The position numbers and the translations under genes are program-made. DNA of 47,155 nucleotides from Halomicronema sp. CCY15110 (GTDB taxonomy: Bacteria > Cyanobacteriota > Cyanobacteriia > Phormidesmidales > Phormidesmidaceae): contig NZ_JACSWC010000410.1 of the NCBI RefSeq assembly GCF_016888165.1, positions 1 through 47,155 of the forward strand, given 5' to 3'. Below the pieces are notes generated by a model. That model made no database searches. It worked only from the letters and a program-made list of their open reading frames with translations, and was not told the DNA's origin. Shown here one piece after another: positions 30,287 to 46,400 of the stretch (position 1 is its first letter; every line of letters starts with the position of its first letter).

Positions 30287-32053
30287 TCAAGGGGCGGCAG
30301 TCGAGGCCAGGGCGATCGCGAGTTGGGGGGCGAGGTTGCCCGTCCAGCGGCTGGCGATCGGCATGCGCCACTCGGAGCCAAAGGCGCGATCGGTCACTTT
30401 CAGCACAGGGGGAGCCTGACGACGTTTGAACTCGGCGCGACTCATCAGGCGCACGACCTTTTGAACAATGTCGATGTCATGCCCTGCCGCCGCAATGTCG
30501 TCAATGGCTTGGTGGCGCTGCACCAGCCGTTCCAAGATGTCGTCCAGCACTTCATAGCTGGGCAGGGAATCCTGATCCACCTGGCCCGGCTTGAGTTCGG
30601 CGCTGGGGGCTTTGGTCAAGATATTGCCCGGAATGATGGGATCTACTTGGCTGGCATTAGCGGCCTTGACTAAGGCTGCCGGGTGCTGATTGAGCCATTC
30701 ACAGATGTGGTAAACGCGAGTTTTGGGCACGTCGGCAATCACCGCCAGGCCACCGTTCATGTCGCCGTAAAGGGTGCAGTAACCGACCGCCATTTCGGAC
30801 TTGTTGCCCGTGGAGAGCAGCAGGTGCCCGAATTTGTTGGCGATCGCCATCAGCAAGTTGCCGCGAATGCGAGACTGAATATTTTCTTCGGCAACGCCAA
30901 ACTCCTTGTCGGCAAACAGGTTTGCTAGGGTCTCGTCGTAGCCAGACATCAGCGGGCCAATCGCCAGGGTTTCGCTGTGGATGCCGAGGTTTTGCACCAG
31001 TTGCTCGGCATCGCTGATGGAATGGCCAGAGCTATAGGGGGAGGGCATGAGCACGCCGAGCACGTTATCGGGGCCAAGGGCAGCAGCGGCGATCGCGGCC
31101 ACTAGCGCCGAATCGACCCCGCCACTGAGACCAATGACCGCCTTGCTAAAGCCACACTTGCGGGCGTAGTCCCTGACGCCCAGCACGAGGGCTGACCAAA
31201 TTTCTTCGTTGATGTCCGCGATCGCGCCCGCGATCGTCCCCCCCTGCAAATCCGCGGCTTGGGGATCGTAGGTGAGCCATTGCAAATCCGCCTGGAAGGC
31301 GCAGGCCCGAGTCACTAACTCACCCTGACGATTGACCGCCACACTGCTGCCGTCAAAAATCAGGTCGTCATTCGCGCCAATCTGGTTGGCATACACAATC
31401 GGCACATCAAACCGCTGGGCGCTATGGGCCAACATGGCTTCCCGAATTTGCTGCTTTTGCGCCGTGAAGGGAGAGGCCGACAGGTTGACCACTAGATCCA
31501 CGCCGATGTCTTTTAATTGCGCGATGGGATTGTGCGGATACTTGCGTTGCCCCCAGAACTGCTCGTCGTTCCACAAGTCTTCGCAGATGGTGACGCCAAT
31601 GTGAACGCTGCGTCCAGCGGCGAGGGCGAGGTGAAAGTGGTTGGCCGCTTGTCCGGGCTCAAAGTAGCGGTCTTCATCAAATACGTCGTAGGTGGGCAGC
31701 AGTTGTTTGTGGAAAACTTGCTGGACCTGACCCTGCTCTAAATGGGCGATGCTGTTGTAAAGCGGCTTTTCCCCGCGATCGCTGGCCCCGGCATTGGGCT
31801 CCGCACAGCCCACCAGCACCGCCACTTCGGGAGGTAGCTGGGCGGCTAGACTTTCGAGCTGCTGACGCATGGCTGCAATAAAGCCGGGACGCAACAATAA
31901 GTCACGGGGCGGATAGCCACACAGCGACAATTCTGGCGTCAACACCAGGCGGGCACCGCCAGCCGCAGCGTGTTTCACAGCGGCGACAATCTGTTCGGCA
32001 TTGTGGGTGAGGTCGCCAATGGTGGGGTTGAGTTGAGCGATCGCAATTTTCAT
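30287..32053 (-). CDS. nadE: Glutamine-dependent NAD+ synthetase
   Basis: NadE amidates nicotinate adenine dinucleotide to NAD+, the last step of synthesis. The 588-residue two-domain form has an N-terminal nitrilase-like glutaminase with its Glu-Lys-Cys triad: Glu41 in LTPELSLCGYPPRDLL, Lys in HKQLLPTYDVFDE, and Cys in GVTICEDLWND. The C-terminal ATP-pyrophosphatase synthetase domain has VIGLSGGVDSALVAAIA and LLSTGNKSEMAVGYCTLYGD. It lies 136 nt downstream of nrtR on the same strand, completing an NAD cluster. Whether it shares the pncB transcript is not clear, and no palindrome like the one before pncB precedes it. Confidence 0.96.
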   Translation of the reverse strand: MKIAIAQLNPTIGDLTHNAEQIVAAVKHAAAGGARLVLTPELSLCGYPPRDLLLRPGFIAAMRQQLESLAAQLPPEVAVLVGCAEPNAGASDRGEKPLYNSIAHLEQGQVQQVFHKQLLPTYDVFDEDRYFEPGQAANHFHLALAAGRSVHIGVTICEDLWNDEQFWGQRKYPHNPIAQLKDIGVDLVVNLSASPFTAQKQQIREAMLAHSAQRFDVPIVYANQIGANDDLIFDGSSVAVNRQGELVTRACAFQADLQWLTYDPQAADLQGGTIAGAIADINEEIWSALVLGVRDYARKCGFSKAVIGLSGGVDSALVAAIAAAALGPDNVLGVLMPSPYSSGHSISDAEQLVQNLGIHSETLAIGPLMSGYDETLANLFADKEFGVAEENIQSRIRGNLLMAIANKFGHLLLSTGNKSEMAVGYCTLYGDMNGGLAVIADVPKTRVYHICEWLNQHPAALVKAANASQVDPIIPGNILTKAPSAELKPGQVDQDSLPSYEVLDDILERLVQRHQAIDDIAAAGHDIDIVQKVVRLMSRAEFKRRQAPPVLKVTDRAFGSEWRMPIASRWTGNLAPQLAIALASTAAP

Positions 32054-32189
32054 AGAAGTTACCGATACATAGTGAATGGCTTAACAGCTGGGATCACGAA
32101 CTGAGTAATGCACGGGGGGTACGAGGGGGAGAGCGCCGCACCGATTTGGGGGACACGAGTATCTGTCATCCTTCTTGATGAGCCCACAT

Positions 32190-32936
32190 TTAGATAAAGA
32201 CCATGGGCTTATCTTTCAACAGGTCAAAAGCGTCGGCATCAAACTGATAGAGGCTGGCGGGGCGACCGGCACCACGGGAAGTTTTGTTGCCCGTGTCTTC
32301 TAAAAAGCCCAGCTTCAGCAGCCGCGCCCGAAAGTTGGAATAGTCCGAAAAGCCCTCGCCCAAGACTGTGACATAGAGCTGATACAGGTCGCCCAGGGTG
32401 AAGATGTCGGGCAATACGTCGAAGGCGATCGGGCTATATTCCAGCTTGTTTTTGAGGCGCTGGTAGCCATAGGCGAGCACCTCAGCATGGTCGAAGGCGA
32501 GGGTGGGCACTTGCGCCAGGGGATACCAGGCAATGCCGCTGACGCCATCGGCAATGAGTTCGGCTTCGGCGAACCGCACCAGGGCAAAGTGGCTCACTGA
32601 GAGGTAACGCACGCCATAGGCTTCCTCTGCTTCACGGGGATCGCGCTCTGGCCCGCCAAAGGTATAGAGCTGTTCCAGATACAGATTTTCGACCCGAATC
32701 TTTTCGGACAGCACGCGGTAGGCGGCGTCCTCCAGCGATTCGCCCTGGCGCACCAGGGTGCCGGGCAGGCTCCAACAGCCGTCATAGGGGGCGTCGTGGC
32801 GCATGACCAACAGCACGAGCAGCCGATTTTGCTCCGTATCCACGGAGAAAATCACGTTGTCCACGCCGACCTTAAAGTCGGCTAGGGGTTCGGCGTTCAA
32901 GAGATGGCCTGTTTTTCTTGGGAGCTTTCCGTGCAT
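32190..32936 (-). CDS. nrtR: NrtR-type NAD metabolism repressor (Nudix domain plus winged helix)
   Basis: This 248-residue protein has an N-terminal Nudix fold (~20-150) and a C-terminal winged-helix DNA-binding domain (~172-235: FTLGDLYQLYVTVLGEGFSD, NFRARLLKLGFLED, RGAGRPASLYQF). That is the architecture of NrtR, which represses NAD genes and releases DNA on binding ADP-ribose. The Nudix box reads LPGTLVRQGESLEDAAYRVL then SEKIRV. Two of the Glu positions in R-E-U-x-E-E are Val75 and Lys79, so hydrolase activity is probably lost, as in other NrtR proteins. Its start overlaps the nadD end by 40 nt, and pncB-nadD-nrtR form one operon. A near-certain target is the palindrome before pncB. Confidence 0.88.
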   Translation of the reverse strand: MHGKLPRKTGHLLNAEPLADFKVGVDNVIFSVDTEQNRLLVLLVMRHDAPYDGCWSLPGTLVRQGESLEDAAYRVLSEKIRVENLYLEQLYTFGGPERDPREAEEAYGVRYLSVSHFALVRFAEAELIADGVSGIAWYPLAQVPTLAFDHAEVLAYGYQRLKNKLEYSPIAFDVLPDIFTLGDLYQLYVTVLGEGFSDYSNFRARLLKLGFLEDTGNKTSRGAGRPASLYQFDADAFDLLKDKPMVFI

Positions 32937-33496
32937 GGATACAAATTTCGTTGGTTAATATAAGCGCGAACGGCGGCGGGTAAGGCTTGGGCGTCTTCGG
33001 TTTGGCGGTAGTAAGACGACGACACCTCAAAGGTTTTGAGGGTTTCCGCGATCGCCACCTGTCCCCCCTGTTGACGAATCGCAGCTAAAGCGTGGTCGGA
33101 GGGTTGGTAGCCGGGGCGCGGCATGACCAAAATGTTGACGAGTTGAAACAACTCAGCAGCTTGGTACCAGCGGGGCAGCTGCTCGACCAAGTCGGCTCCC
33201 ACAATCAGGGTGAGTTCGGCGTGGGGCCACATCTCGCGGGCTTGCTGGGCACTGACCACACTGCGCCGATGGCTGAGCGCTGCATAGAGGGCGATGCGAC
33301 CGGGGGGCACCGGCAAGTCGTGAATCATCAGATCGAGCATGGCTTGGCGATCGCGCAGCGGGCACTGGTGCTGCTTAAACGGATTGTCAGCGGCCCACAC
33401 GGCCACATGATCAAAATGCTGAGCGAGCCATCGCAACACTCTGCCGTGGCCCCGATGGGGCGGGTCGGCACTCATTCCAAATAGGGCAATTCGCAT
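32897..33496 (-). CDS. nadD: Nicotinate-nucleotide adenylyltransferase-like protein
   Basis: NadD adenylates nicotinate mononucleotide. From the ATG at 33496 this is a 199-residue nucleotidyltransferase. The N-terminal ATP motif is ALFGMSADPPHRGHG (family GxFDPxHxGH, with Ser-Ala in place of Phe), then VWAADNPFKQH, LIVGADLVEQLPRWY, and the C-terminal EVSSSYYR in place of ISSTxIR. The frame is open back to 33589, but the family begins close to the first strand; ATG codons at 33508 and 33511 are alternatives. pncB ends just upstream and nrtR overlaps downstream. The order of reactions PncB then NadD then NadE is preserved in the gene order. Confidence 0.88.
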   Translation of the reverse strand: MRIALFGMSADPPHRGHGRVLRWLAQHFDHVAVWAADNPFKQHQCPLRDRQAMLDLMIHDLPVPPGRIALYAALSHRRSVVSAQQAREMWPHAELTLIVGADLVEQLPRWYQAAELFQLVNILVMPRPGYQPSDHALAAIRQQGGQVAIAETLKTFEVSSSYYRQTEDAQALPAAVRAYINQRNLYPCTESSQEKQAIS

Positions 33497-33596
33497 GGGC
33501 TTTTCCATCATGGGCAGGCAGGTAAAACAGCGACAGGCAGAGGATGAAACACAAAAATTGTTATTCGGGTGGGGCATGAGGTGCCCCATTGGTCGG

Positions 33597-34976
33597 TCAT
33601 GACTGGCCCCCGCTGCCCACCGTTGATTGGGTTCGGTGGCGGGTGGCCTGAGTCAATTGCTCCAGCGCGGGCGTAATTTCCACAGTGTAAGGGTTCGGGT
33701 CTTGAACTTGCCGTACCGCTGGCGACAGGGCAGCGACCGACTGGGCCGTGCGCTGGGCGATCGCTGGGAGGTCAGCCAAGGGGGCAATCAGCCGGCCATT
33801 TTGCATCACGGGTTGCAGCAGGGGCTGGGCTCCGGAGTCGGGAGATTCAGTCGCAAGGGCAAGGTAGTCTTGCACAGCGCGATCGCCCTCAGATTGTCGG
33901 AAAATTTGTTTGCGGCCCGGATAGGTAACCTTGCTCGACGACTCTTTCATCACCGGCATGCCATCAATCTCGACCAGTTTGTAAACGCCGTTAACTGGAC
34001 TGCCCGTGACCAGTCGCGTACCCAAGCCATAGCCATCAATCACGGCTCCGGCCTGTTTCAGCCGGACAATTTCGTATTCGTCAATGTCGCCACTGGCAAA
34101 AATGGGCACATCGGGCAGCAGCTCGCGCACCTGCTGAGACAGCAGGGCGAGATCGCCAGAATCTAGTCGAATGCCCGCCAGAGCCGCTTGTCCCTGCTGC
34201 CGATGTTCGGCCAGATGCCGGGCGGCGGCCACCGTGTCAAAGGTATCGATCAGCAACGGCGCACCGGGAAAGTAGCGATGGAAGGCGTCAAACGCATCGG
34301 TCTCACTGCCTTCGAGGGCGGCGATCGCCATCACCAGCGCGTGGGCCATGGTTCCTGCCGGCTTTTGCCCCAGTTGCAGCGCGGCCAAGACATTGGATGT
34401 ACTATCTAGGCCGCCCGCGATCGCGGCCCGCGCCGCCCACAGCGCCCCTTGGGGACTAAAGGCCCGCCGCGTGCCAAATTCCAGCAGTTTGGCTTCGGGG
34501 CCAGCGACATCGCGTAAGCGAGCCGCCCGTGTCGCAATGAGCGTTTGATAATTGAGCGTATTCAGGAGATAAGTTTCCACTACCTGGGCCTGCCACAGCG
34601 GGGCTTCGATGCGCAGCAGGGGTTCGTTGGCAAACACCGCCGTGCCCTCGGGTACCGCCCACACGTCCCCGGTGAATCGAGCGTGGCGGAGGGTTTCCCA
34701 AAAGGCCGTCGGGGCATGGGCAAAAATCCCCGTCGCTTGCAGCTGGGCGAGATGGCGATCGCTGAAAGTGAACGCTTCGAGATACTCGATCGCCTGAGTC
34801 AGCCCCATCGCGATGAGATAGCCAAAGTTAGGCGGCAACCGGCGGGTAAATAGCTCAAAGCTGGCGCGGCGCTGGTCTAGGCCCTCGCCCACGTAGCAGG
34901 CACTCATGGTGAGCTGATAGAGATCCGTCAGCAAGCTGTAGTCTTCGGGCAGGGCCTGCAAAGGTGAGAGTGGCAT
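33597..34976 (-). CDS. pncB: Nicotinate phosphoribosyltransferase
   Basis: PncB salvages nicotinate to nicotinate mononucleotide using PRPP and ATP. The 459-residue protein from the ATG at 34976 has family blocks LLTDLYQLTMSACY, FELFTRRLPPNFGYLIA, LEFGTRRAFSPQGALWAARAA, STSNVLAA, GIRLDSGDLALLSQQ and IFASGDIDEYEI. The open frame extends to 35012, but that would place the start inside a perfect palindrome, so the later ATG (MPLSPLQALPEDYS) is used. It is the first gene of pncB-nadD-nrtR and diverges from ubiA. Confidence 0.95.
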   Translation of the reverse strand: MPLSPLQALPEDYSLLTDLYQLTMSACYVGEGLDQRRASFELFTRRLPPNFGYLIAMGLTQAIEYLEAFTFSDRHLAQLQATGIFAHAPTAFWETLRHARFTGDVWAVPEGTAVFANEPLLRIEAPLWQAQVVETYLLNTLNYQTLIATRAARLRDVAGPEAKLLEFGTRRAFSPQGALWAARAAIAGGLDSTSNVLAALQLGQKPAGTMAHALVMAIAALEGSETDAFDAFHRYFPGAPLLIDTFDTVAAARHLAEHRQQGQAALAGIRLDSGDLALLSQQVRELLPDVPIFASGDIDEYEIVRLKQAGAVIDGYGLGTRLVTGSPVNGVYKLVEIDGMPVMKESSSKVTYPGRKQIFRQSEGDRAVQDYLALATESPDSGAQPLLQPVMQNGRLIAPLADLPAIAQRTAQSVAALSPAVRQVQDPNPYTVEITPALEQLTQATRHRTQSTVGSGGQS

Positions 34977-34993
34977 AGCGAACTCTGAACAAC

Positions 34994-35014
34994 TTATGGT
35001 CATTTTAACCATAA
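34994..35014. promoter_or_regulatory. Perfect 21-bp palindrome, candidate NrtR operator
   Basis: Arms TTATGGT (34994-35000) and ACCATAA (35008-35014) flank a 7-nt centre (cattttа-type, AT-rich). The whole 21 bp is palindromic apart from the centre. It lies 17 nt upstream of the pncB start codon on the minus strand, in front of the operon that encodes NrtR. Known NrtR operators are palindromes of about this length. Confidence 0.65.
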
Positions 35015-36211: not shown

Positions 36212-37813
36212 TTAATCTTCGACCACAAATTCCATCAGCCGCCCTTGGGGACTGCCGAAGCGCAAGCGATCGCCCGATTGCAGACAGACTTCAGTGCGGT
36301 GGAGCTGTTGCCAGGTGCCCTGTTGTTCACAAAACGTGCCGTAGCGCGAGTCGTCACGCAAATAGTAAGCCACCGACTGCATGGCACTGGAGTTGTTCGT
36401 CTGGCGACAAAAGATTTCGGCATGGTGACCCGATACCCACGGCTCGGGGATGACGAGGTCGTTTTCGGGACGGCGACCAATACGGAGCATCCCGCCGTAG
36501 AGATACCAGGCTAAATGGGGATCATCAACGGCGCGAATGACCGCCATGGGATTGTTGGGGCAGGCATCGCCAGGGAGGCGGGTAATGTCCATCTCTTGGT
36601 CGGCGAGTACCTGACTATCAAAATCGGGGTGCCGATACAATACCGGCAACGTCCAGGCGGGCTGATTGAATTTGTACAGGGTGAGCAGTTGCTGGCGGGC
36701 GATCGCCACGGCCCGATCAACCGGATTGCGCTCCGTCAGCGCCTGGGCAAAGACCTGGATAAAGCTCAGGGCTTCTTCATCGGCAATGGCGTCACGCATG
36801 GCAATGACCGCCGGCACCCCGTGGTGCAACAACACTTCCGCCAAACTGCTGCGGGGAATCGGTCGCTGGTCTTGCTGATCGGGCCGCGCCCCCCAGCAGG
36901 TGTTAAACACGGCCAACTTCACTTGATTGAGCAGCAGCAGTTGGGCCAGTTCGGTACCATTCAGGGTCGATTCAGCTTGTAGGTAGATCAGGCCGCCATC
37001 GGGAGCGGGCACACCGTGACCGGCGTAGAAAAAGACATTGTATTCGCCGCGATCGATCGCCTTGATCAGTTCGCTGGCTCGCGGTCGCACCAGCACGTCA
37101 ACCTGGCAAGGCGCACCGGTGCGGACACTCAGACCAGACGTACTCTCCCCGGTTAAAACCCGCTTGAGTAGTTGGGCTTCGGCTTCGAGCTGGAGAGTGT
37201 CGGCGGCTTCGCGATCGCCGGGCACATCCGGTTCTCCCAGCACCAGCAACACTTTGAGGTGCTGATCCAGCCGAATCGCCGCCAGGGGATCGACATCGCT
37301 TGTAGTGCGGCTAAAGCGGACATATTCGTTTAACGACATGGCTTGGCGGCCGGGCTGGGGCTGCATGATTTCCCACGGTAGGCCGATCAGGTCAGGGTCA
37401 CGAATGTCGAGACACAGCGATAGGGGATTGCCCTGCCCCATGGCAATGCCCAAACTTTGGTCAAGGCTGCCTTTAATCGCACCGTCAAACAGCCACTGCC
37501 ACAGTTTGACGCCGAGGGTTTGCATCAAGCGACCCGAGTAGCCTTGCGCCTTGCCATCGGGGGACTTGAGCAGCTCGGGCGTGACCATTTGCGGCACATA
37601 GGATGCGGGGACATGGGGCACCGGCGGCAAGCCCCGCAGCGAGAAGAGTTCGAGCCAGCTTTGCCACAGTTGGTTGAGCTCGTCAGACCAGGGGCGATCG
37701 TGGTGGACGTAGCCACCAGGGTAAGGGGCTTCGACCACCCAAATTGCGTAGTGGGGGGTGGTGGCATTCGCCAGACGCTCGATGGCAATACGCAGACGGA
37801 TAGGCTCTGACAT
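36212..37813 (-). CDS. CHAT-domain caspase-like protein with C-terminal FHA domain
   Basis: This 533-residue cytoplasmic protein lacks a signal peptide or membrane helix. Residues ~185-400 form a CHAT domain (caspase HetF-associated) with the catalytic dyad His266 (FFYAGHG) and Cys306 (AVFNTCWGA). The domain end AWTLPVLYRHPDF is also typical. Residues ~440-530 are an FHA phosphothreonine-binding domain: LRIGRRPENDLVI, VSGHHAEIFC and YGTFCEQQG. The usual Asn of N-G-T-F is Tyr491, so phosphopeptide binding may be altered. The N-terminal ~180 residues are unassigned (PWEIMQP is common in CHAT proteins). The PP2C gene lies 97 nt upstream on the same strand, so the two are probably co-transcribed. 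Confidence 0.88.
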   Translation of the reverse strand: MSEPIRLRIAIERLANATTPHYAIWVVEAPYPGGYVHHDRPWSDELNQLWQSWLELFSLRGLPPVPHVPASYVPQMVTPELLKSPDGKAQGYSGRLMQTLGVKLWQWLFDGAIKGSLDQSLGIAMGQGNPLSLCLDIRDPDLIGLPWEIMQPQPGRQAMSLNEYVRFSRTTSDVDPLAAIRLDQHLKVLLVLGEPDVPGDREAADTLQLEAEAQLLKRVLTGESTSGLSVRTGAPCQVDVLVRPRASELIKAIDRGEYNVFFYAGHGVPAPDGGLIYLQAESTLNGTELAQLLLLNQVKLAVFNTCWGARPDQQDQRPIPRSSLAEVLLHHGVPAVIAMRDAIADEEALSFIQVFAQALTERNPVDRAVAIARQQLLTLYKFNQPAWTLPVLYRHPDFDSQVLADQEMDITRLPGDACPNNPMAVIRAVDDPHLAWYLYGGMLRIGRRPENDLVIPEPWVSGHHAEIFCRQTNNSSAMQSVAYYLRDDSRYGTFCEQQGTWQQLHRTEVCLQSGDRLRFGSPQGRLMEFVVED

Positions 37814-37910
37814 CGAAAATCATGAGGGAGAAAACAGACGCGAAAAGCGGTAGATCGGCATGCCCTGATCAAGCATCACTGGCGAGGGCCGACCAGCGTA
37901 GCCCGGATCG

Positions 37911-40151
37911 TTAGTCAGTACACAATCCCTGCTGAGGGCTAGATGTGTCAAGTAAGGGGGCCGCAAAGGTGGCGACATCGCCTTGCAGAACCCAGCCCTC
38001 ATCTCCTGGCATCGCGATCGGCCAGAGGAGAGCGGGGCGACCCCCCTCTAGGGCCGGTGGTAACGGCGCTTCGGAGCCTACGGTCGGGTTTGCCGTCGGG
38101 GTAGAACAGACTTGCAGACGCACCCATAACTCGCCAGCAGGCGTTTGTTGACGACTCCGCACCCGCACCACCGTCTGGGCAATCAGCAGCCGTTTGGGCG
38201 GATCGACTGCACTGGGGGCATCGGCGGCGGGAGGGGCCGGGGTCGTCATCAAGGTGGCCGCAGCGGTGGGGTCCGACAAAGTTTTGATTTGCAGATAATC
38301 GCCCACAGCCAGGTCAGCGATCGCGGTCGACCCGGTGGGTGGCTCAGCGGATGGCGAAAGGGTAGAGCCGCTAGGGGGCGCTGAGTCCTCCAAGGGGGCC
38401 GGGGCTCGGCGTTGCCACCATTGCCACCCGAGGGCAGCGATAATGCCGACCCCAGCGGCCACAAGCACACTGACAATGATTAGCGGCCATCGGTTTTTCG
38501 GCTGGGCTGGAGGGGGGGGGACGGGGCGCAGGGTCGTGGGAGCCGCTGCCGGGGGGCGAGCCGTGACCAGGGGCGCAGTGACATCGGGGGCGGCTTGCCG
38601 GAGCCCCTCCACCAGTTGCACCGGCACGGGGGCCACCGCCCCTCCGACTTGAGGACTCACCCGCAACAGCCCCACGGTGACGTTGTCATGGCCATTGTGG
38701 GTATTGGCTAAGGTGACCAGCCGTTGGGTCGCCTGCCCCACGTCGCGATCGCCCACCAACACGGGGTGTAGTTCCGCCGCCCAGAGCTGATCGACCAAGT
38801 CGTAATCACTGAGGCCATCGGAACAGAGCACAATCAAACTGTCGGCAGCGATCGCAAACAGCTGCACGGTGGGGTGCAGATGCGGGGTCGGGGCCATGCC
38901 CAGGGCTTGCACCAAGGCCCCCGCACCGGGATGCTGTAACGCTTCGGCATAGAGCCGCAGGCCCAGGCGCGTATCGCGCACGGCAATGTCATCATCCAGG
39001 GTGAGCTGGCGGCAATTGTGCGATCGCACCCGGTAAGCCCGACTATCGCCCAAATGTGCGACATACAGACAACCGTCGTACACCAGCGCCAGGACGATGG
39101 TGGTGCCCATGCGGCCCCGCTCGCGCTTGTGATCGGCATCGTTGCGCTGAGCGATCGCTTCATTCGCCCTCAACAGAGCCTGTTTCAGCGTCAGCACGAG
39201 GTCGGCGTGGGGCACGCCATTACGCACTAGCAACGGCTGGAGGGCTTGGGTGACTTCCGCGATCGCCGTTTGGGACGCAATGTTGCCGCCTTCATGGCCG
39301 CCGATCCCATCGCAAACCACTAATAATGGCGCTGGGGTGAGTTGATGGCTGGTCTCCGTCATCAGCTGCACAGTTTGCGCGGTGCCGCTGGCCGGAAAAC
39401 AGGCGTCTTCATTGCGGTTGCGGGTTGGCCCCTGATCCGACTGCACCGCCCATTGCACCTGGCAGGGCTGCTGGGCCGATTGCTGTTGCAGCGCCTGCGC
39501 AAGGGAATTCACCAGGCCCCCGACTTGGCCCTGCCCCGCGACCAACTGCTGAGTTAACCGAGTCAAATAGTCGCGGATAGTTGGCGCGGCCTGGTTGACT
39601 AAGCCCTGCCAGTGTTGGCCTAAATCCTTTAAATCGAGCGGTGACGGATCAACAGTCACCATCAACAGCCGCACATCCTCACCATCGACCCGCACGAGGT
39701 CGGCAGCAAGCAGGCAATGGGCGACTCGCTGATCCAGACACGGTTGCCAAAGTTGGGCCAACTGCCAGAGCCACGACAACTGCTCGATGGCAGAAGCTTG
39801 GGGCCATGATTCAGTCAGCGCGGGTAATAAGTCAGGAGGGGCGTCGGCGTGGAGCTGTCCCCGCAGTGGCACCTCGTCAAGCAGCAACAACGGCTGGCCT
39901 TCAGCCTGTGACACCTGGGTGACAGGCCGAGGCATCGCCGTCAAATAAGGCGACAACACTAAATACGGCATGGCCGCCGCAGGAACGTCAGCTAAAGCAG
40001 GCGGCGGCAACTGGGGTTGCGTATCGCGCACGAGGGGAAAGCGAATGACCTGATAGCGCTGCGCCAAATAGCTGCCCGCTGGCAAGGGTGCGGCCACGGT
40101 GCCCTGTGCCCAGAGATAGCGCTGTATCGGTGGCAACTGCGAATTCGGCAT
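37911..40151 (-). CDS. Membrane-anchored PP2C protein phosphatase with kinase-like N-terminal region
   Basis: This 746-residue protein has a PP2C domain (~232-498) with all metal motifs: RNRNED (244-249), VCDGIGGHEGG (279-289), MGTTIV (348-353), LGDSRAYR (367-374), CSDGLSDY and GHDNVTV. It should dephosphorylate Ser/Thr residues. The N-terminal ~225 residues resemble a degenerate protein-kinase fold (GSYLAQRYQVI, LLLDEVP, a late LLAADLVRVDGE), an inference by eye only. A Pro-rich linker leads to one membrane helix (555-578), then ~165 residues that would be extracytoplasmic. It lies just upstream of the CHAT-FHA gene on the same strand. Confidence 0.9.
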   Translation of the reverse strand: MPNSQLPPIQRYLWAQGTVAAPLPAGSYLAQRYQVIRFPLVRDTQPQLPPPALADVPAAAMPYLVLSPYLTAMPRPVTQVSQAEGQPLLLLDEVPLRGQLHADAPPDLLPALTESWPQASAIEQLSWLWQLAQLWQPCLDQRVAHCLLAADLVRVDGEDVRLLMVTVDPSPLDLKDLGQHWQGLVNQAAPTIRDYLTRLTQQLVAGQGQVGGLVNSLAQALQQQSAQQPCQVQWAVQSDQGPTRNRNEDACFPASGTAQTVQLMTETSHQLTPAPLLVVCDGIGGHEGGNIASQTAIAEVTQALQPLLVRNGVPHADLVLTLKQALLRANEAIAQRNDADHKRERGRMGTTIVLALVYDGCLYVAHLGDSRAYRVRSHNCRQLTLDDDIAVRDTRLGLRLYAEALQHPGAGALVQALGMAPTPHLHPTVQLFAIAADSLIVLCSDGLSDYDLVDQLWAAELHPVLVGDRDVGQATQRLVTLANTHNGHDNVTVGLLRVSPQVGGAVAPVPVQLVEGLRQAAPDVTAPLVTARPPAAAPTTLRPVPPPPAQPKNRWPLIIVSVLVAAGVGIIAALGWQWWQRRAPAPLEDSAPPSGSTLSPSAEPPTGSTAIADLAVGDYLQIKTLSDPTAAATLMTTPAPPAADAPSAVDPPKRLLIAQTVVRVRSRQQTPAGELWVRLQVCSTPTANPTVGSEAPLPPALEGGRPALLWPIAMPGDEGWVLQGDVATFAAPLLDTSSPQQGLCTD

Positions 40152-40601: not shown

Positions 40602-40866
40602 GAGCTCTTACAGTTCAAAAATAGTCGGCTAACCTGTTGTCATTGTAAAGGCAGGGCGATCGCTCGTCGGATCGAGATCTCATAGAGATTCATGAGGGCA
40701 GCCATAATCTTGTCCCCCACCCGGCGGCGATGCCCGATCCAACGCCGAATCACCCGTCCGGATCGGGCCAGTCCAGCCCTCGCATTGAGCACCGGGATGG
40801 TTAACCGACGGGGTTCTCCTTCACAATGGGAGAGTTGCCCCCTGCTGCTGAGTTTTGAGAACTGCC

Positions 40867-42093
40867 ATGTCCCATCCCCTAGCCCCCATTCTTAACCGAG
40901 CCTTAGACGGCGGCGATGTGACTCCCGATGAGGGCCTGGCTTTGTTATGCACGGCTGACCCGGTGGCGATCGCGGCCATTCAGGCGACGGCCGATACCTT
41001 GCGACAACGGCAAGCGGGCGACACCGTGACCTATGTGGTGAATCGCAACCTCAACTTCACCAACATTTGCGAACAGCACTGTAGTTTTTGCGCCTTTCGT
41101 CGCGACGATGGCGAAGACGGAGCCTTTTGGGTGGACTGGGGAGCCATGGCCGAAAAAGCCGCCGATGCGGTAACCCAGGGCGCGACGGAGATTTGTATGC
41201 AGGGGGGCTTAAATCCCGCCGCCAAAGTCAACGGCAGTAGCCTGCAATATTACATTCAACTCATTCGCAACATTAAAGATCCGTGGCCGCAGTTGCACCT
41301 CCATGCCTTTTCGCCCCAAGAGATCCAGTTCATCGCCCGCGAAGATGGCCGGAGCTATGCCGAGGTGATTACAGCGCTGCAAGCGGCTGGTGTGGGATCG
41401 CTGCCGGGTACAGCGGCGGAGGTGCTGGATGATGCGGTGCGGCGGGTATTGTGCCCGGAAAAAATTGACAGCGAGACCTGGCTTGAAATTGTCGGGTTGG
41501 CTCATCAATTGGGCCTATCGACCACCAGCACGATGTTGTGTGGGCACATCGAAACACCCGCCCAGCAAATCACCCATTTTGAGCAACTGCGGCAGCTCCA
41601 GCAGCAGGCGATCGCCCAAGCCAAGCCCGCCCGCATCACCGAATTCATCTTGCTGCCCTTTGTCGGCGAGGCGGCCCCCAAACCCCTGCGACGACGGGTG
41701 GGACGCGACCAGCCCGTGCTGCGCGACGTGTTGCATCTGACGGCGGTGTCGCGCATTTATCTGGGCAACTGGATTCCCAATCATCAGCCGAGCTGGGTCA
41801 AGCTGGGGCTGTCTGGCGCAATTGACGCTCTGCAGTGGGGCTGCAACGACATTGGCGGCACCCTGATGGAAGAGCACATTACCACCATGGCGGGGGCCAA
41901 AGGCGGCACCTGTATGACGGTGAACGACTTGCAAGGGGCGATCGCGTCGATCAATCGGCCCCATCAACAGCGCGACACCCTTTATCGCCCCGTCGATGCT
42001 GGCCTGTCCGCTGCCCCAGGGATTGGCGTGTCGGCCTCAATGGGGAATAGCGTGCCCGCGCGACAGTCCCGCAGCCATAAGCGCACAGCTTGA
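40867..42093 (+). CDS. cofH: FO synthase subunit CofH (5-amino-6-(D-ribitylamino)uracil-tyrosine transferase)
   Basis: CofH is a radical-SAM enzyme that joins a tyrosine-derived fragment to a riboflavin precursor. With CofG it makes FO, the 8-hydroxy-5-deazaflavin antenna of cyanobacterial photolyases. The 408-residue protein has the SAM cluster motif C68-x3-C72-x2-C75 ([11 protein letters not shown]), [19 protein letters not shown], and the late [15 protein letters not shown]-type block ([17 protein letters not shown]). A TTG four codons upstream is an alternative start. The last ~37 codons overlap, on the opposite strand, the end of the next gene. cofG is not in the window. Confidence 0.94.
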
Positions 42094-42644
42094 CCCATAA
42101 TGCCGTCGCTGCTCTCTTGCGGCGGCGTAGGCGGTCGGCTGGGCTGATCCGCTGCCGCCAAGCGGGAAAACATCAGCGTTAGCCGCCAGCCCTCTGCCGT
42201 GGGCACTAAAAACAACCAGTGATACTGTTCCTGCCGGATCGTCTCGTCGTCGAGATAGCGGCGCTCCAAGGTGGTGAAAAAGACTTGTTGCGTAGCGTCG
42301 TCAGCGACGGGTTCAAACGCCAAGGTTTCCAACGGTAAGGGCTCAAATTCGGCGCGGCCCGCCAGCAGCATCGTGCCAAACTGGGTGTCGTCGGGGGTGG
42401 TGCCCAGGGTGCGCCGAGCGACGCGATTGGCATAACTGGGCAAGTCGCGCAGCAGCCCAGTGGTCAAGGTTTCCACGTTTTGGGGGCACACCATGGGCGG
42501 ACGTAAAAAGGGCTCGATCGCGGCGGCGTTGGCCCAACTTGGGGCAGCGGCGATCGCCCCCATCGCCAGACTCAGCCCGCCGCTCAGGATTAACCGGAGC
42601 GCTACCATGCGATTGTGGGGTTTGGTTATCAACATCGACCTCAT
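41982..42644 (-). CDS. Secreted or periplasmic protein of unknown function
   Basis: This 220-residue protein has a hydrophobic N-terminal segment ([20 protein letters not shown], predicted cleavage after SWA). The mature part contains [33 protein letters not shown], a beta-rich middle ([44 protein letters not shown]), and WLRDCRAG near the end. I have an impression of a cyanobacterial conserved protein of this pattern but cannot name it. ATG codons at 42644, 42635 and 42608 are all possible; GAGG lies just before the one at 42635. Its last 112 bp overlap the 3' end of cofH. Confidence 0.7.
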
Positions 42645-42848: not shown

Positions 42849-45800
42849 ATGGTGCAAAATCGTTCATTATTCGTAGTTTTGTTAGTGGCGGCAGGCTTCA
42901 TCACGCCGACCCTAACGGGAGCGCAGGCGGCAAAACTGGCGCAAGGGGTGGATAATCCTGATGCCATGGACAATTCCGATGCCGAGGCGGCCCCAACGCC
43001 AGCGGCCAGCGAGACGGCTGTCGGTGCTGACGCCAAGTTTCAAGTGCCTGCCGATGGCTTACCCGCTGACGCGAGCCTGACCATCGAGGGCACCGCCAGC
43101 ATGGCCACCATCACAAAATCGCTGGTGCAAGCCTTTGAAGCAAAATATCCCAACGCCACTGTCACCGTGGTCGAACAACCCGCCGAGGGGGCACTAAAAA
43201 ACCTGCAAGCGGGCGAGGTGGAACTCATTGCGATCGGTCGCCCGTTGACAGCCGAACAACAAGCCCAGGGGTTAGTGCCGGTTTCCGTCAGTCGGGAAAA
43301 AATTGCGATTATTGTCGGCGCGGACAATCCCTTTTCGGGAGAGTTAGAGGCTACAGACTTTGTCAACATTTTTTGGGGCACGGTCACCAATTGGCAGCAA
43401 TTAGGCGGGCCAGACCTGCCCATTCGCTTTATTGATCGACCCGAAACTAGCGATACTCGGGCGTCCCTGGGCGAATACGAGGTGTTTGGCGGTGACATGA
43501 CCGCTGGGGAAAAAGCGATCCAGGTCGAGAATGACAGCACCGCCGCAGTCGTCGCGGAATTGGGCGATAACGGCATCAGTTATGCGATCGCCAGCCAGGT
43601 GCTCGACCAGGAAAATGTCCGGGTATTACCGATGTACGGCACCACCCCCGACAGTGGGGACTATCCTTATTCGCAACCGCGCAACTATGTTTATCTGAGC
43701 AGCCAGTCCCTCTCGCCCTCGGCATCCGCCTTTTTGGCCCTGGCCACCGATGCCGAAGGCCAAGCGGCGGTCGCTGAGGCCAAAGCGGCAGAAGCGGCAG
43801 ATGTCGCCGTTGCAGACTTGCCCGACTACGTTTCAGCGATGCGCCCCGATGGTCAAGGCTTTGTGGTGGGCGATCGCGACGGCAACCTCATCCTGCGGCA
43901 AACCAACGGGACCGCTGTGGGCGAGCCCATCCCCGCCCATGCTGGCCCCGTGACGGCGCTGGCCTTTAGTGCCGATGGGCAACGGTTGATCAGCGGCGGA
44001 GCCGACGCCACCCTGCGCTGGTGGAATGCCGATGGCACCCCCATTGGCGACCCTAGCAATGCTGGCAATGAGGTCATCACGAGCCTCACGGCACAGCCTG
44101 ACGGTGGCGTGATTAGTGCGACCCAAACGGGCACCTGGCAGCGGTGGGATGCTACGGGCAATCCCGTGGGTGCACCCGTTACGGGTCACGCCGGAGCGGT
44201 GCGCGATACGGCCCTGAGTACGGACGGTAGCACCCTGATTACGGCCAGCGACGACGGCACCATTCGCCTGTGGAATGTGGCCGATGGCACCCAGCGGGGC
44301 GAACCGATTACCGGACATCAAGGCCCCGTGCGCTCGCTCGCCGTGTTGCCCGATGGCCGCTTCTTCTCCGGGGGAGCGGATGGCACCGTGCGGCAATGGG
44401 CGGCCGATGGCACCAACATTGGCGAGCCACTTACCGTCTCTGGCCCCGTCACCGCGATCGCGGTCAACGCGGAAGGCAACAGTATTGTCGTCGGTGATGA
44501 AACTGGGGCGCTGCAATATCTCTCTGGCGATGGCGTGCCCGTGGGCGAGCCGTTGACGGACGTAGGTGCTCCGGTCGAGGCCCTGGCCCTCACCCCGGAT
44601 GGTCAGCAACTTGTCGTGAGTGCGGGCGAGACGCCTCAGCTACGCGATAGTACCGGGGTGATTATCTCCGGCTCTGATCCCGACGGGGCTGATGGGGATG
44701 AGAGTGCGATCGCGGGGAATCTGCCCCCGTCGCTGCAAAATTTATGGGAACAACTGCAAGGCTTACCGCCCCAGGTGCTGTGGATTATTCCCCTAGCGCT
44801 CTTGGCGATTTTGCTGCTCGGGCTGCTGCGCAGCTTTCAGCAAGAGACCGACGACATTAGCGATGACGACGAGGAAACGCCCGAGTTGCTCCCCAGTGCC
44901 GACACTGCTGATGCGGTAGAAAGCTTGGCGGCGGACGATTTTTCAGCAGACGATTTTTCAGCAGACAACTTTGCGACGCCCGCTGCACCCAGACCCGCTG
45001 CAGCGGTTTCCCCGGCCCCAGCCGCTCCCCTGGCCGGATTTGCCTCCGACCTAACGGCAGAACCCATTGACGGCTCCCTCGCCCAAGCCAAACAAACGCT
45101 GCAAGAGGGCGTCAGTTTTGGCAAGGCGGGACGGTATCAACTGGCGCTTGACCGCTTCAATAAAGCGATCGAGCTAGCCGATATGGAACGTCTCAAGGCC
45201 GCTGCTGCCGGGACGACTTTAGTAGGAGCCAGCGCCGTCATTGCCCGGGGCTTAGCCCGACGCGGGGCCACCTTAGCCAACCTGGGTCGCGCGGATGACG
45301 CCCTCAAAAGCCTTAATCGCTCCTTAGAGATGGATCCCGACGATGCCGCCGCCTGGATTGGCAAGGGCAATGTCTTCATCCCGATGGGCCAACTGGACGA
45401 GTCACTGTTTTGCTTTGATAAAGCGATCGAGTTAAATCCCCACCTCGCCGCCGCTTGGCAAGGCAAAGGCCAAGCCCTTCAGCAAATGGGGCGCGATGCC
45501 GAAGCTCGCCAATGTTTCCAGCAAGCCGCATCCCTTGGCGGCCAGAACGACGATATCCCCCTCGACCTGGGCACCCCAGCGGTGAGTAACGCGGCCACAT
45601 CGGTCTTGGAGAGCATCCCAGCCCCCTCGATCAATGCGGCGAATGCCAAAGAGTCACCGAGTTTTACCGCTGGTATTAGCACCCCACCATCGCCGCCGCC
45701 CGCGCCACGTCCCACGCCTCAACCGGCTGAGGCAAATCTGCCCGCTGATATGCCCATCGGCCCCATCGGGCTCAGCGCCGCCGATTCGGTGCAGTCCCCT

Positions 45801-46400
45801 AGTTTTGATGATGAGTTACCGTCCGACTTATTAGCCGCGATCGACGATCTCCCCACGGCCGACCAACCCACGACCGAGACGGTCATCCAGGCCCCATCGG
45901 CCCCCTCATCACCGACGACCGCCGCCATCAGTCCGACCGAGCCCCTACCCGACACTCTGGAAACCGCCGTCCCCGCAGACATTTTGCAAGCCGTTGGCGA
46001 CTTACCCACCGAGGCCGAGGACGCCGACCCCAACGCGCCACTGACCAACCCAGTGAGCGTGCCCCCCGAGGTCGAAGCCATCCTGTCCGGGCAGTCAGAT
46101 ATCCCCGATCGCGAGGAAGTCGCCAGCAGTCCCGCTGCTGCCCGGCCCTCAGCCGCCGCCGCAGACGAGGATGAGGACGAGACGCTAGTCATGCCTCGGC
46201 CTGCCGTCACTGCCTCAGCACCGGACTCTGGTGTTGAGACAGCGTTGGATGGGTTACCGCCGGAAGTCTTAGCCGCCCTGGAAGGCATTCCGGCGGACTC
46301 TCCCGATAGCTTTGGCCTCTCGACGGCAGCCTCCGCTGAGCCCCCTGCCTCCCCCTCTGGAACCGAACCCTCTGAGGAAGATGAAAATACGGCTCCTTAA
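42849..46400 (+). CDS. Phosphate-binding-like plus WD40 plus TM plus TPR protein with repeated tail motif
   Basis: This 1183-residue multi-domain protein has a signal peptide (FVVLLVAAGFITPTLTGAQA) and a PstS-like periplasmic-binding domain (~75-310: LTIEGTASMATITKSLVQAF, IFWGTVTNWQQLGG, SYAIASQ). Six or seven WD40-like blades follow (~325-605: SADGQRLISGGADATLRWWN, GSTLITASDDGTIRLWN). There is a single membrane helix (~643-661) and an acidic linker. The ~150-residue TPR region (~745-895) includes YQLALDRFNKAIEL, DDALKSLNRSLEMDP and ESLFCFDKAIELNPH. A ~290-residue disordered Pro/Ala/Asp tail carries four copies of a short motif. The ATG at 42849 has GAGGAG 7 nt upstream. The N terminus faces outside the cytoplasm. 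Function unknown; it is not a transporter component in the usual sense. Confidence 0.88.
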   Translation: MVQNRSLFVVLLVAAGFITPTLTGAQAAKLAQGVDNPDAMDNSDAEAAPTPAASETAVGADAKFQVPADGLPADASLTIEGTASMATITKSLVQAFEAKYPNATVTVVEQPAEGALKNLQAGEVELIAIGRPLTAEQQAQGLVPVSVSREKIAIIVGADNPFSGELEATDFVNIFWGTVTNWQQLGGPDLPIRFIDRPETSDTRASLGEYEVFGGDMTAGEKAIQVENDSTAAVVAELGDNGISYAIASQVLDQENVRVLPMYGTTPDSGDYPYSQPRNYVYLSSQSLSPSASAFLALATDAEGQAAVAEAKAAEAADVAVADLPDYVSAMRPDGQGFVVGDRDGNLILRQTNGTAVGEPIPAHAGPVTALAFSADGQRLISGGADATLRWWNADGTPIGDPSNAGNEVITSLTAQPDGGVISATQTGTWQRWDATGNPVGAPVTGHAGAVRDTALSTDGSTLITASDDGTIRLWNVADGTQRGEPITGHQGPVRSLAVLPDGRFFSGGADGTVRQWAADGTNIGEPLTVSGPVTAIAVNAEGNSIVVGDETGALQYLSGDGVPVGEPLTDVGAPVEALALTPDGQQLVVSAGETPQLRDSTGVIISGSDPDGADGDESAIAGNLPPSLQNLWEQLQGLPPQVLWIIPLALLAILLLGLLRSFQQETDDISDDDEETPELLPSADTADAVESLAADDFSADDFSADNFATPAAPRPAAAVSPAPAAPLAGFASDLTAEPIDGSLAQAKQTLQEGVSFGKAGRYQLALDRFNKAIELADMERLKAAAAGTTLVGASAVIARGLARRGATLANLGRADDALKSLNRSLEMDPDDAAAWIGKGNVFIPMGQLDESLFCFDKAIELNPHLAAAWQGKGQALQQMGRDAEARQCFQQAASLGGQNDDIPLDLGTPAVSNAATSVLESIPAPSINAANAKESPSFTAGISTPPSPPPAPRPTPQPAEANLPADMPIGPIGLSAADSVQSPSFDDELPSDLLAAIDDLPTADQPTTETVIQAPSAPSSPTTAAISPTEPLPDTLETAVPADILQAVGDLPTEAEDADPNAPLTNPVSVPPEVEAILSGQSDIPDREEVASSPAAARPSAAAADEDEDETLVMPRPAVTASAPDSGVETALDGLPPEVLAALEGIPADSPDSFGLSTAASAEPPASPSGTEPSEEDENTAP

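What the first reader, a model, noticed from the sequence alone, without database searches (positions are those of the whole stretch)
42849..46400. Single protein joining a PstS-like binding domain, WD40 propeller, membrane helix and TPR tail
The order seen is signal peptide, phosphate-binding-like domain, WD40-like blades, one membrane helix, TPR region and a long disordered tail. It suggests a transmembrane receptor: a ligand domain and propeller outside the cytoplasm, and a protein-binding scaffold inside. I do not know of a described system with this architecture. PstS-like domains normally serve ABC uptake, and none of that machinery is encoded nearby.
Basis: partly seen in the sequence, partly recalled or inferred. 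Interest (0 to 1): 0.8.

Follow-up and report, generated by a model that had tools for sequence, protein, structure and literature searches.

The report
Cyanobacterial membrane receptor from PstS-like protein
This cyanobacterial gene encodes one membrane-spanning protein with a phosphate-transporter-type binding domain and a seven-bladed propeller on the outer side of the inner membrane and a protein-binding scaffold inside, and it belongs to a large family of receptor-like proteins across cyanobacteria for which no description was found.

Summary
Confirmed: window 42849-46400 encodes one 1183-residue protein with signal peptide, PstS-like domain (2.6e-32), seven-bladed WD40 propeller, one membrane helix, TPR module and disordered tail. 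It is not a chance fusion: 14 relatives align over this order, down to 36% identity; the TPR module occurs in 39 of 63 genomes of the order.

It is one branch of a class-wide family. 185 of 291 genomes hold the binding domain at 1e-30, lone forms included. Of 100 long ORFs read, 89 add DUF4912 or TPR parts. The PstS loop SGT is replaced by SDTR.

The window protein has no recognised enzyme part, but some relatives do: acetyl-CoA synthetase in three genomes, and a glycogen phosphorylase in at least 13, which lacks the expected cofactor lysine.

In the window's branch a tail motif occurs 46 times in 20 of 20 TPR-module proteins and in none of 89 others, a candidate TPR ligand.

Best reading: a ligand-sensing receptor-adaptor. 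Ligand, partners and function are untested. Ten literature searches found no description.

The parts
42849..46400 (+). whole coding sequence, 1183 aa, ATG start to stop
   Evidence: start region conserved in alignment A1
42849..42926 (+). signal peptide, residues about 1-26
   Evidence: hydrophobic N-terminal stretch; cleavage site read by eye, no predictor at hand
43062..43751 (+). PstS/Sll0540-like periplasmic binding domain, residues 72-301
   Evidence: PBP_like_2 2.6e-32; 9l8j Sll0540 2.1e-44
43434..43460 (+). family signature DRPxxSDTR (residues 196-204) in the place of the PstS SGT loop
43830..44669 (+). seven-bladed WD40 propeller, residues 328-607
44784..44843 (+). single membrane helix, residues 646-665
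45066..45551 (+). TPR module with a long extra helix, residues 740-901; marker of this orthologue group
45819..45854 (+). tail motif copy 1, PSDLLAAIDDLP
45972..46007 (+). tail motif copy 2, PADILQAVGDLP
46254..46316 (+). tail motif copy 3 with its extension LPPEVLAALEGIPADSPDSFG, 61-100% identical in 13 of 14 orthologues compared

Best explanation
It is a single-pass receptor-adaptor. A PstS-type binding domain beside a propeller in the periplasm detects a small ligand, probably an anion. Through one membrane helix this changes the spacing or clustering of the chains and so what the cytoplasmic TPR module holds. The TPR module most likely binds the repeated P-x-(D/E)-hydrophobic-x-x-A-hydrophobic-x-x-hydrophobic-P motifs of its own or a neighbouring chain, or of a partner carrying such a motif. 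Relatives that carry acetyl-CoA synthetase or a phosphorylase-like domain suggest that the family's inner side is tied to central carbon metabolism. Shown here: domain order, conservation, family, changed pocket loop, co-occurrence of motif and TPR module, enzyme-fused relatives. Supported: topology. Inferred: ligand binding, signalling, TPR-motif binding, the metabolic link for this protein.
For: Conserved order in orthologues. Class-wide relatives with the same outside-helix-inside plan; more K+R after the helix in 68 ORFs, before it in 5, ties 13. 33 of 105 ORFs carry a near full-length copy (45-68% identity) of a Rho_N-DUF4912 protein that stands alone in the window's genome. Three genomes fuse their only acetyl-CoA synthetase over the family cut-off to the receptor. 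Binding-domain residues under constraint: R131 in all 100 ungapped, D196 and R204 in all 101 long-form sequences, D202 in 93 of 101. Motif in 20 of 20 module proteins (46 copies, about 0.7 expected after shuffling) and 0 of 89 others (about 2.8 expected). The last motif is 61-80% identical where the binding domain is 49-52%.
Against: No ligand, partner or phenotype is known. The motif pattern was written after seeing some of these tails and the 20 proteins are homologues, so its statistics are not independent. In G034, G038 and G039 the orthologue lacks the binding domain, so ligand binding by it is not needed in every member. The enzyme-fused and Rho_N-DUF4912 relatives lie outside the window's orthologue group, and the window genome keeps its phosphorylase and acetyl-CoA synthetase as separate genes on other contigs. 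Gene neighbours are kept only in the genus and one further genome.
Confidence: 0.5

Rival explanations
1. Envelope tether or organiser: binding domain and propeller hold another envelope protein or polymer permanently, TPR and tail hold cytoplasmic partners, and there is no regulated small-ligand signal.
For: Three PBP-less orthologues keep propeller, helix, TPR and motifs. Relatives carry up to eight DUF4912 domains, whose model resembles tandem FNIII domains, a scaffold-type fold. The fused phosphorylase domains look catalytically dead.
Against: Strong invariance of pocket-region residues across 101 sequences suggests that a ligand site is kept; the fused acetyl-CoA synthetases keep the two motifs looked for.
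Confidence: 0.25
2. Uptake accessory: a membrane-anchored collector of phosphate or another anion that feeds a Pst-type permease encoded elsewhere.
For: Binding domain is of the Sll0540/PstS kind; the genome has a PBP-permease cluster at C205.
Against: No ABC-transporter genes among 10 window ORFs scanned; no convincing Pho-box-like site upstream; SDTR loop; a large conserved cytoplasmic part that uptake does not need.
Confidence: 0.12
3. Artefact: a chimera of neighbouring genes or of assembly.
For: Some relatives are broken in draft assemblies (G047 and L008, G061).
Against: Uninterrupted orthologues in many genomes, some on contigs over 1 Mb (G002, G003, G021, G043, G046).
Confidence: 0.02

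Closest known systems
Sll0540 of Synechocystis (PDB 9l8j), a PstS homologue
   Same: closest solved relative of the binding domain, E 2.1e-44; lone relatives of about 310 aa sit beside long forms in several genomes
   Different: lone binding domain in the solved construct; SGTQ where the long proteins have SDTR; it shares the acidic residue at position 113
PstS / TIGR02136 phosphate-binding proteins
   Same: same fold and superfamily
   Different: TIGR02136 cut-off not reached (77.2 against 206.6 bits); membrane-anchored, not in a pst cluster as far as the contig shows
PBP-TM-DUF4912, PBP-TM-acetyl-CoA synthetase and PBP-TM-phosphorylase-like proteins of cyanobacteria (unnamed family found here)
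   Same: same binding-domain subfamily, DRPxxS(D/E)TR signature and plan; some orthologues of the window protein still end in DUF4912
   Different: the window clade has a full propeller and the special TPR module and lacks DUF4912 and any enzyme part
BvgS-type sensor kinases with Venus-flytrap domains (recalled, from no call)
   Same: periplasmic binding-protein fold coupled across the membrane
   Different: no kinase or cyclase was recognised here

Membership tests
PstS phosphate-binding proteins | PBP superfamily domain | tested here: met
   PBP_like_2 113 bits, cut-off 27
PstS phosphate-binding proteins | reaches the NCBIfam PstS subfamily cut-off | tested here: not met
   TIGR02136 77.2 bits against 206.6
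PstS phosphate-binding proteins | SGT loop and small-residue GSS-type loop that hold phosphate (roles recalled) | tested here: not met
   SDTR in place of SGT; E at position 113, where Sll0540 too has an acid
PstS phosphate-binding proteins | encoded with pstCAB | tested here: not met
   only 755 bases downstream could be seen and 10 window ORFs were scanned
PstS phosphate-binding proteins | binds phosphate | not testable with these tools
   needs protein
WD40 propellers | WD40 repeats that close a seven-bladed ring | tested here: met
   Pfam 108 bits; strands of the model and 7bie TM 0.92
TPR proteins | tandem TPR helical pairs | tested here: met
   TPR_1 76 bits, helices 741-895
Venus-flytrap sensor kinases (BvgS type) | C-terminal kinase domain | tested here: not met
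   none in the best 25 of 47 Pfam rows or in NCBIfam
cyanobacterial PBP-TM receptor family (this report) | signal peptide, Sll0540-like domain with SDTR, one helix, cytoplasmic part | tested here: met

The most novel reading that the evidence does not exclude
Cyanobacteria own a class-wide family of receptors that recruited a phosphate-transport binding protein to watch the periplasm and to act on central carbon metabolism: one branch carries the cell's acetyl-CoA synthetase, another a dead glycogen phosphorylase that could pair with or titrate the active one, others DUF4912 or TPR adaptors. In the window's branch the signal is relayed by ligand-controlled assembly, the TPR module of one chain gripping the repeated tail motif of the next.
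Probability: 0.2. Interest if true: 0.88.

Novelty: new variant of a known kind. Interest (0 to 1): 0.7.

Why it matters
These proteins resemble phosphate-binding proteins, so a family of probable cyanobacterial receptors, several per genome in places, may be hidden under a transport name. Relatives fused to acetyl-CoA synthetase and to a phosphorylase that has lost its expected cofactor lysine hint at a direct line from the periplasm to carbon metabolism. Natural variants without the binding domain or without the propeller make the role of each part testable.

Tried and rejected
This changed the statement, the novel case and the interest score (0.62 to 0.7); the odds of the explanations were left as they were.

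A Pho-box-like tandem repeat: 10 matches with up to 3 mismatches in the window against 4.1 expected (1 of 100 shuffles as many); the one nearest the gene (42668) has 3 mismatches and was not taken as evidence.

Gene neighbourhood: the cofH-like gene 40855-42093 and the secreted-looking protein 41982-42644 stay beside it in G002, G003, G004, G006 and G058, not in the other loci compared, some of them short. No functional link was drawn.

One origin of the WD40-plus-TPR order: the tree puts 14 of 16 such proteins in one clade (96/89), with L070 and L100 outside; holding all 16 together is not rejected (p-AU 0.268). L100's TPR aligns only with the generic part of the module, so a separate assembly is likely but not shown. 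The bootstrap had not settled. WD40 needs at least 6 and TPR 7 changes on that tree.

The census uses profiles built here from Pfam-placed segments, on ORFs taken mostly from the best hits, so its proportions are not a random sample. Its groups 'none' and 'TPR' hold the ACS and phosphorylase fusions L110, L117 and L148, which these profiles could not see.

A stricter pattern for the last motif missed the window protein itself and was dropped for alignment identities. A first recalled pattern for the phosphorylase cofactor site found nothing in the fused domains; two searches showed why.

The tail of L168 (1397 aa) found only a weak coiled-coil match to myosin.

Literature: 10 searches. DUF4912 gave one plant paper (listing only). 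sll0540 gave four papers, of which I saw only passages: PMC3610870, PMC3564720, PMC5053081, PMC11221513. The paper behind 9l8j was not found; its title is known only cut off. All other papers were seen as listings. None of the searches was on phosphorylase or acetyl-CoA synthetase fusions, so nothing is claimed about print for those.

Full report
What is there. The window is contig C347 of a 6.15 Mb genome. Named relatives of the gene are Leptolyngbya, Leptolyngbyaceae and Halomicronema assemblies. One frame, 42849-46400, encodes 1183 residues. Pfam finds PBP_like_2 at 72-301, WD40 and TPR repeats, all above their cut-offs. The AlphaFold2 model, on 15 sequences, gives a binding domain, a seven-bladed propeller (328-607), one helix (646-665), TPR helices (741-895) and long disordered stretches with short helices at the tail motifs. 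Foldseek confirms the propeller (7bie, TM 0.92 by target) but matches the binding domain to Sll0540 (9l8j) poorly in overall shape (TM 0.50, rmsd 10.7), so that assignment rests on sequence, 2.1e-44.

Conservation. The window protein and 14 relatives align over this order, identity to the window protein 84% to 36%; one relative (L083) starts at a contig end. Of eight relatives scanned by Pfam at 1e-12, seven show PBP, WD40 and TPR; L070 passed for PBP and WD40 only and has a shortened TPR part. The TPR module alone finds 20 genomes above 110 bits in a class sample of 291, all in the window's own family, then a gap to 73 bits. In the order I count 39 of 63 genomes with the module, a few of them with partial matches; G014 and G059 match only the generic repeats.

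The wider family. The binding domain matches 61 of 63 genomes of the order at 1e-8, 185 of 291 of the class at 1e-30 and 35 of 117 in a phylum sample, all 35 in the same class. These counts include lone forms of about 310 aa, which in several genomes sit beside long forms with stronger matches. I read 105 ORFs with this domain. By added parts: DUF4912 only 62, none recognised 16, WD40+TPR 10, WD40+TPR+DUF4912 6, TPR 6, WD40+DUF4912 4, TPR+DUF4912 1. Of the 100 of at least 400 aa, 73 have DUF4912, 23 TPR, 20 WD40 (16 with six or more blades), and 89 have DUF4912 or TPR.

Enzyme-fused relatives. The profiles used in the census could not see enzymes. Pfam scans covered 57 family ORFs besides the window's (at thresholds from 1e-12 to 1e-3). 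Three carry enzyme folds, all: acetyl-CoA synthetase in L110 (G105) and L117 (G072), glycogen phosphorylase in L148 (G210). A family search shows that in G072, G105 and G138 the receptor-fused copy is the only acetyl-CoA synthetase over the cut-off (these genomes are 93%, 87% and 79% complete); the two motifs looked for are present in all three. For phosphorylase, reading the long ORFs found gives 13 of 291 genomes with binding domain, helix and phosphorylase in one gene: G085, G134, G145, G178, G189, G210, G213, G230, G236, G259, G265 and G292 in one frame, and G274 interrupted by a stop; in G145 the binding-domain match is partial. The list was cut, so 13 is a lower bound. In seven of the 13 (G085, G189, G210, G230, G236, G259, G274) another PBP ORF follows on the same strand. 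In 15 of 15 such phosphorylase domains aligned (these 13 and two at contig ends, G300 and G315) the lysine of the GNMK motif, recalled as the cofactor-binding lysine, is replaced by I, M or A, while the lone phosphorylase beside two receptors in G198 keeps it. The fused domains therefore look like pseudoenzymes. None of this is in the window protein.

Topology. Of 100 ORFs examined, 95 have a hydrophobic N-terminus and 86 a helix above the threshold after the outside part; most of the other 14 show a tryptophan-rich helix just below it. K+R within 15 residues is 75 before and 223 after the helix; 68 ORFs have more after, 5 more before, 13 tie. The window protein contributes 0 against 1. 33 of 105 ORFs carry, at 45-68% identity over more than 250 residues, a copy of a Rho_N-DUF4912 protein that stands alone in the window's genome and shows no signal peptide by eye; none of the 33 belongs to the window's own orthologue group. 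DUF4912 models well (both copies mostly above 90) and the best Foldseek hits are tandem FNIII domains (8.5e-8), with low whole-chain TM; no single-domain comparison was made.

The pocket. In 101 long-form sequences D196 and R204 are invariant, S201 is kept in 100, R131 in all 100 ungapped, D202 in 93, where Sll0540 and 4q8r have glycine. An acid at 113 is common but Sll0540 has one too. That these loops hold phosphate in PstS is recalled. I infer an anion-type site that is not plainly a phosphate site.

Natural variants. In G034, G038 and G039 the orthologue has signal peptide, propeller, helix, TPR, motifs and DUF4912 but no binding domain (Pfam on G034). In G060 it has binding domain, helix, TPR and DUF4912 but no propeller. 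In G061 the same order is split over two overlapping frames, perhaps a draft error.

The tail motif. The pattern P..[LVIFM]..[AVMI][AVILM]..[LIVFM]P occurs 46 times in the tails of 20 of 20 module proteins, 0.7 expected from shuffles, and never after the binding domain in the other 89 PBP ORFs, 2.8 expected. It was drawn after seeing several tails, and the proteins are related. L122 has three near-identical copies. The last copy with its extension is 61-100% identical in 13 of 14 orthologues; the fourteenth, L081, has a different C-terminus. TPR domains commonly bind short peptides (recalled), so a TPR-motif contact is the simplest use.

Verdict. It is a new variant: known parts in an order, and in a family, for which I found no description in the papers searched.

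Noticed in passing
L161, L165, L166, L169, L172-L180 (G210, G292, G265, G085, G259, G145, G134, G230, G236, G178, G274, G189, G213): Receptor proteins of this family whose cytoplasmic part is a glycogen phosphorylase that has lost the lysine of the GNMK motif in every copy aligned.
   Followed up: partly
L110 (G105), L162 (G138), L171 (G072): Receptor fused to acetyl-CoA synthetase, the only copy over the family cut-off in each of the three genomes.
   Followed up: partly
L120, L121, L122 (G034, G038, G039): Orthologues that lack the binding domain but keep signal peptide, propeller, helix, TPR, motifs and DUF4912.
   Followed up: partly
L160 841-2232, minus (G000:C303): Stand-alone Rho_N-DUF4912 protein of the window's genome; copies are fused to 33 of 105 PBP ORFs.
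   Followed up: partly
L101 and L111, C-terminal about 120 residues: A shared C-terminal domain not named by Pfam, mostly beta in the model.
   Followed up: no
L068, L097, L117, L148/L161: Two long PBP ORFs lie next to each other on the same strand with different inside parts.
   Followed up: no
window 36212-40151, minus: A CHAT-FHA protein and a PP2C phosphatase lie side by side.
   Followed up: no
window 30287-35012, minus: NAD synthesis cluster: NAD synthase, NUDIX regulator-like protein, cytidylyltransferase-like protein, nicotinate phosphoribosyltransferase.
   Followed up: no
window 41982-42644, minus: Secreted-looking 220-aa protein without a Pfam match, divergent from the receptor gene and kept beside it in the genus.
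   Followed up: no
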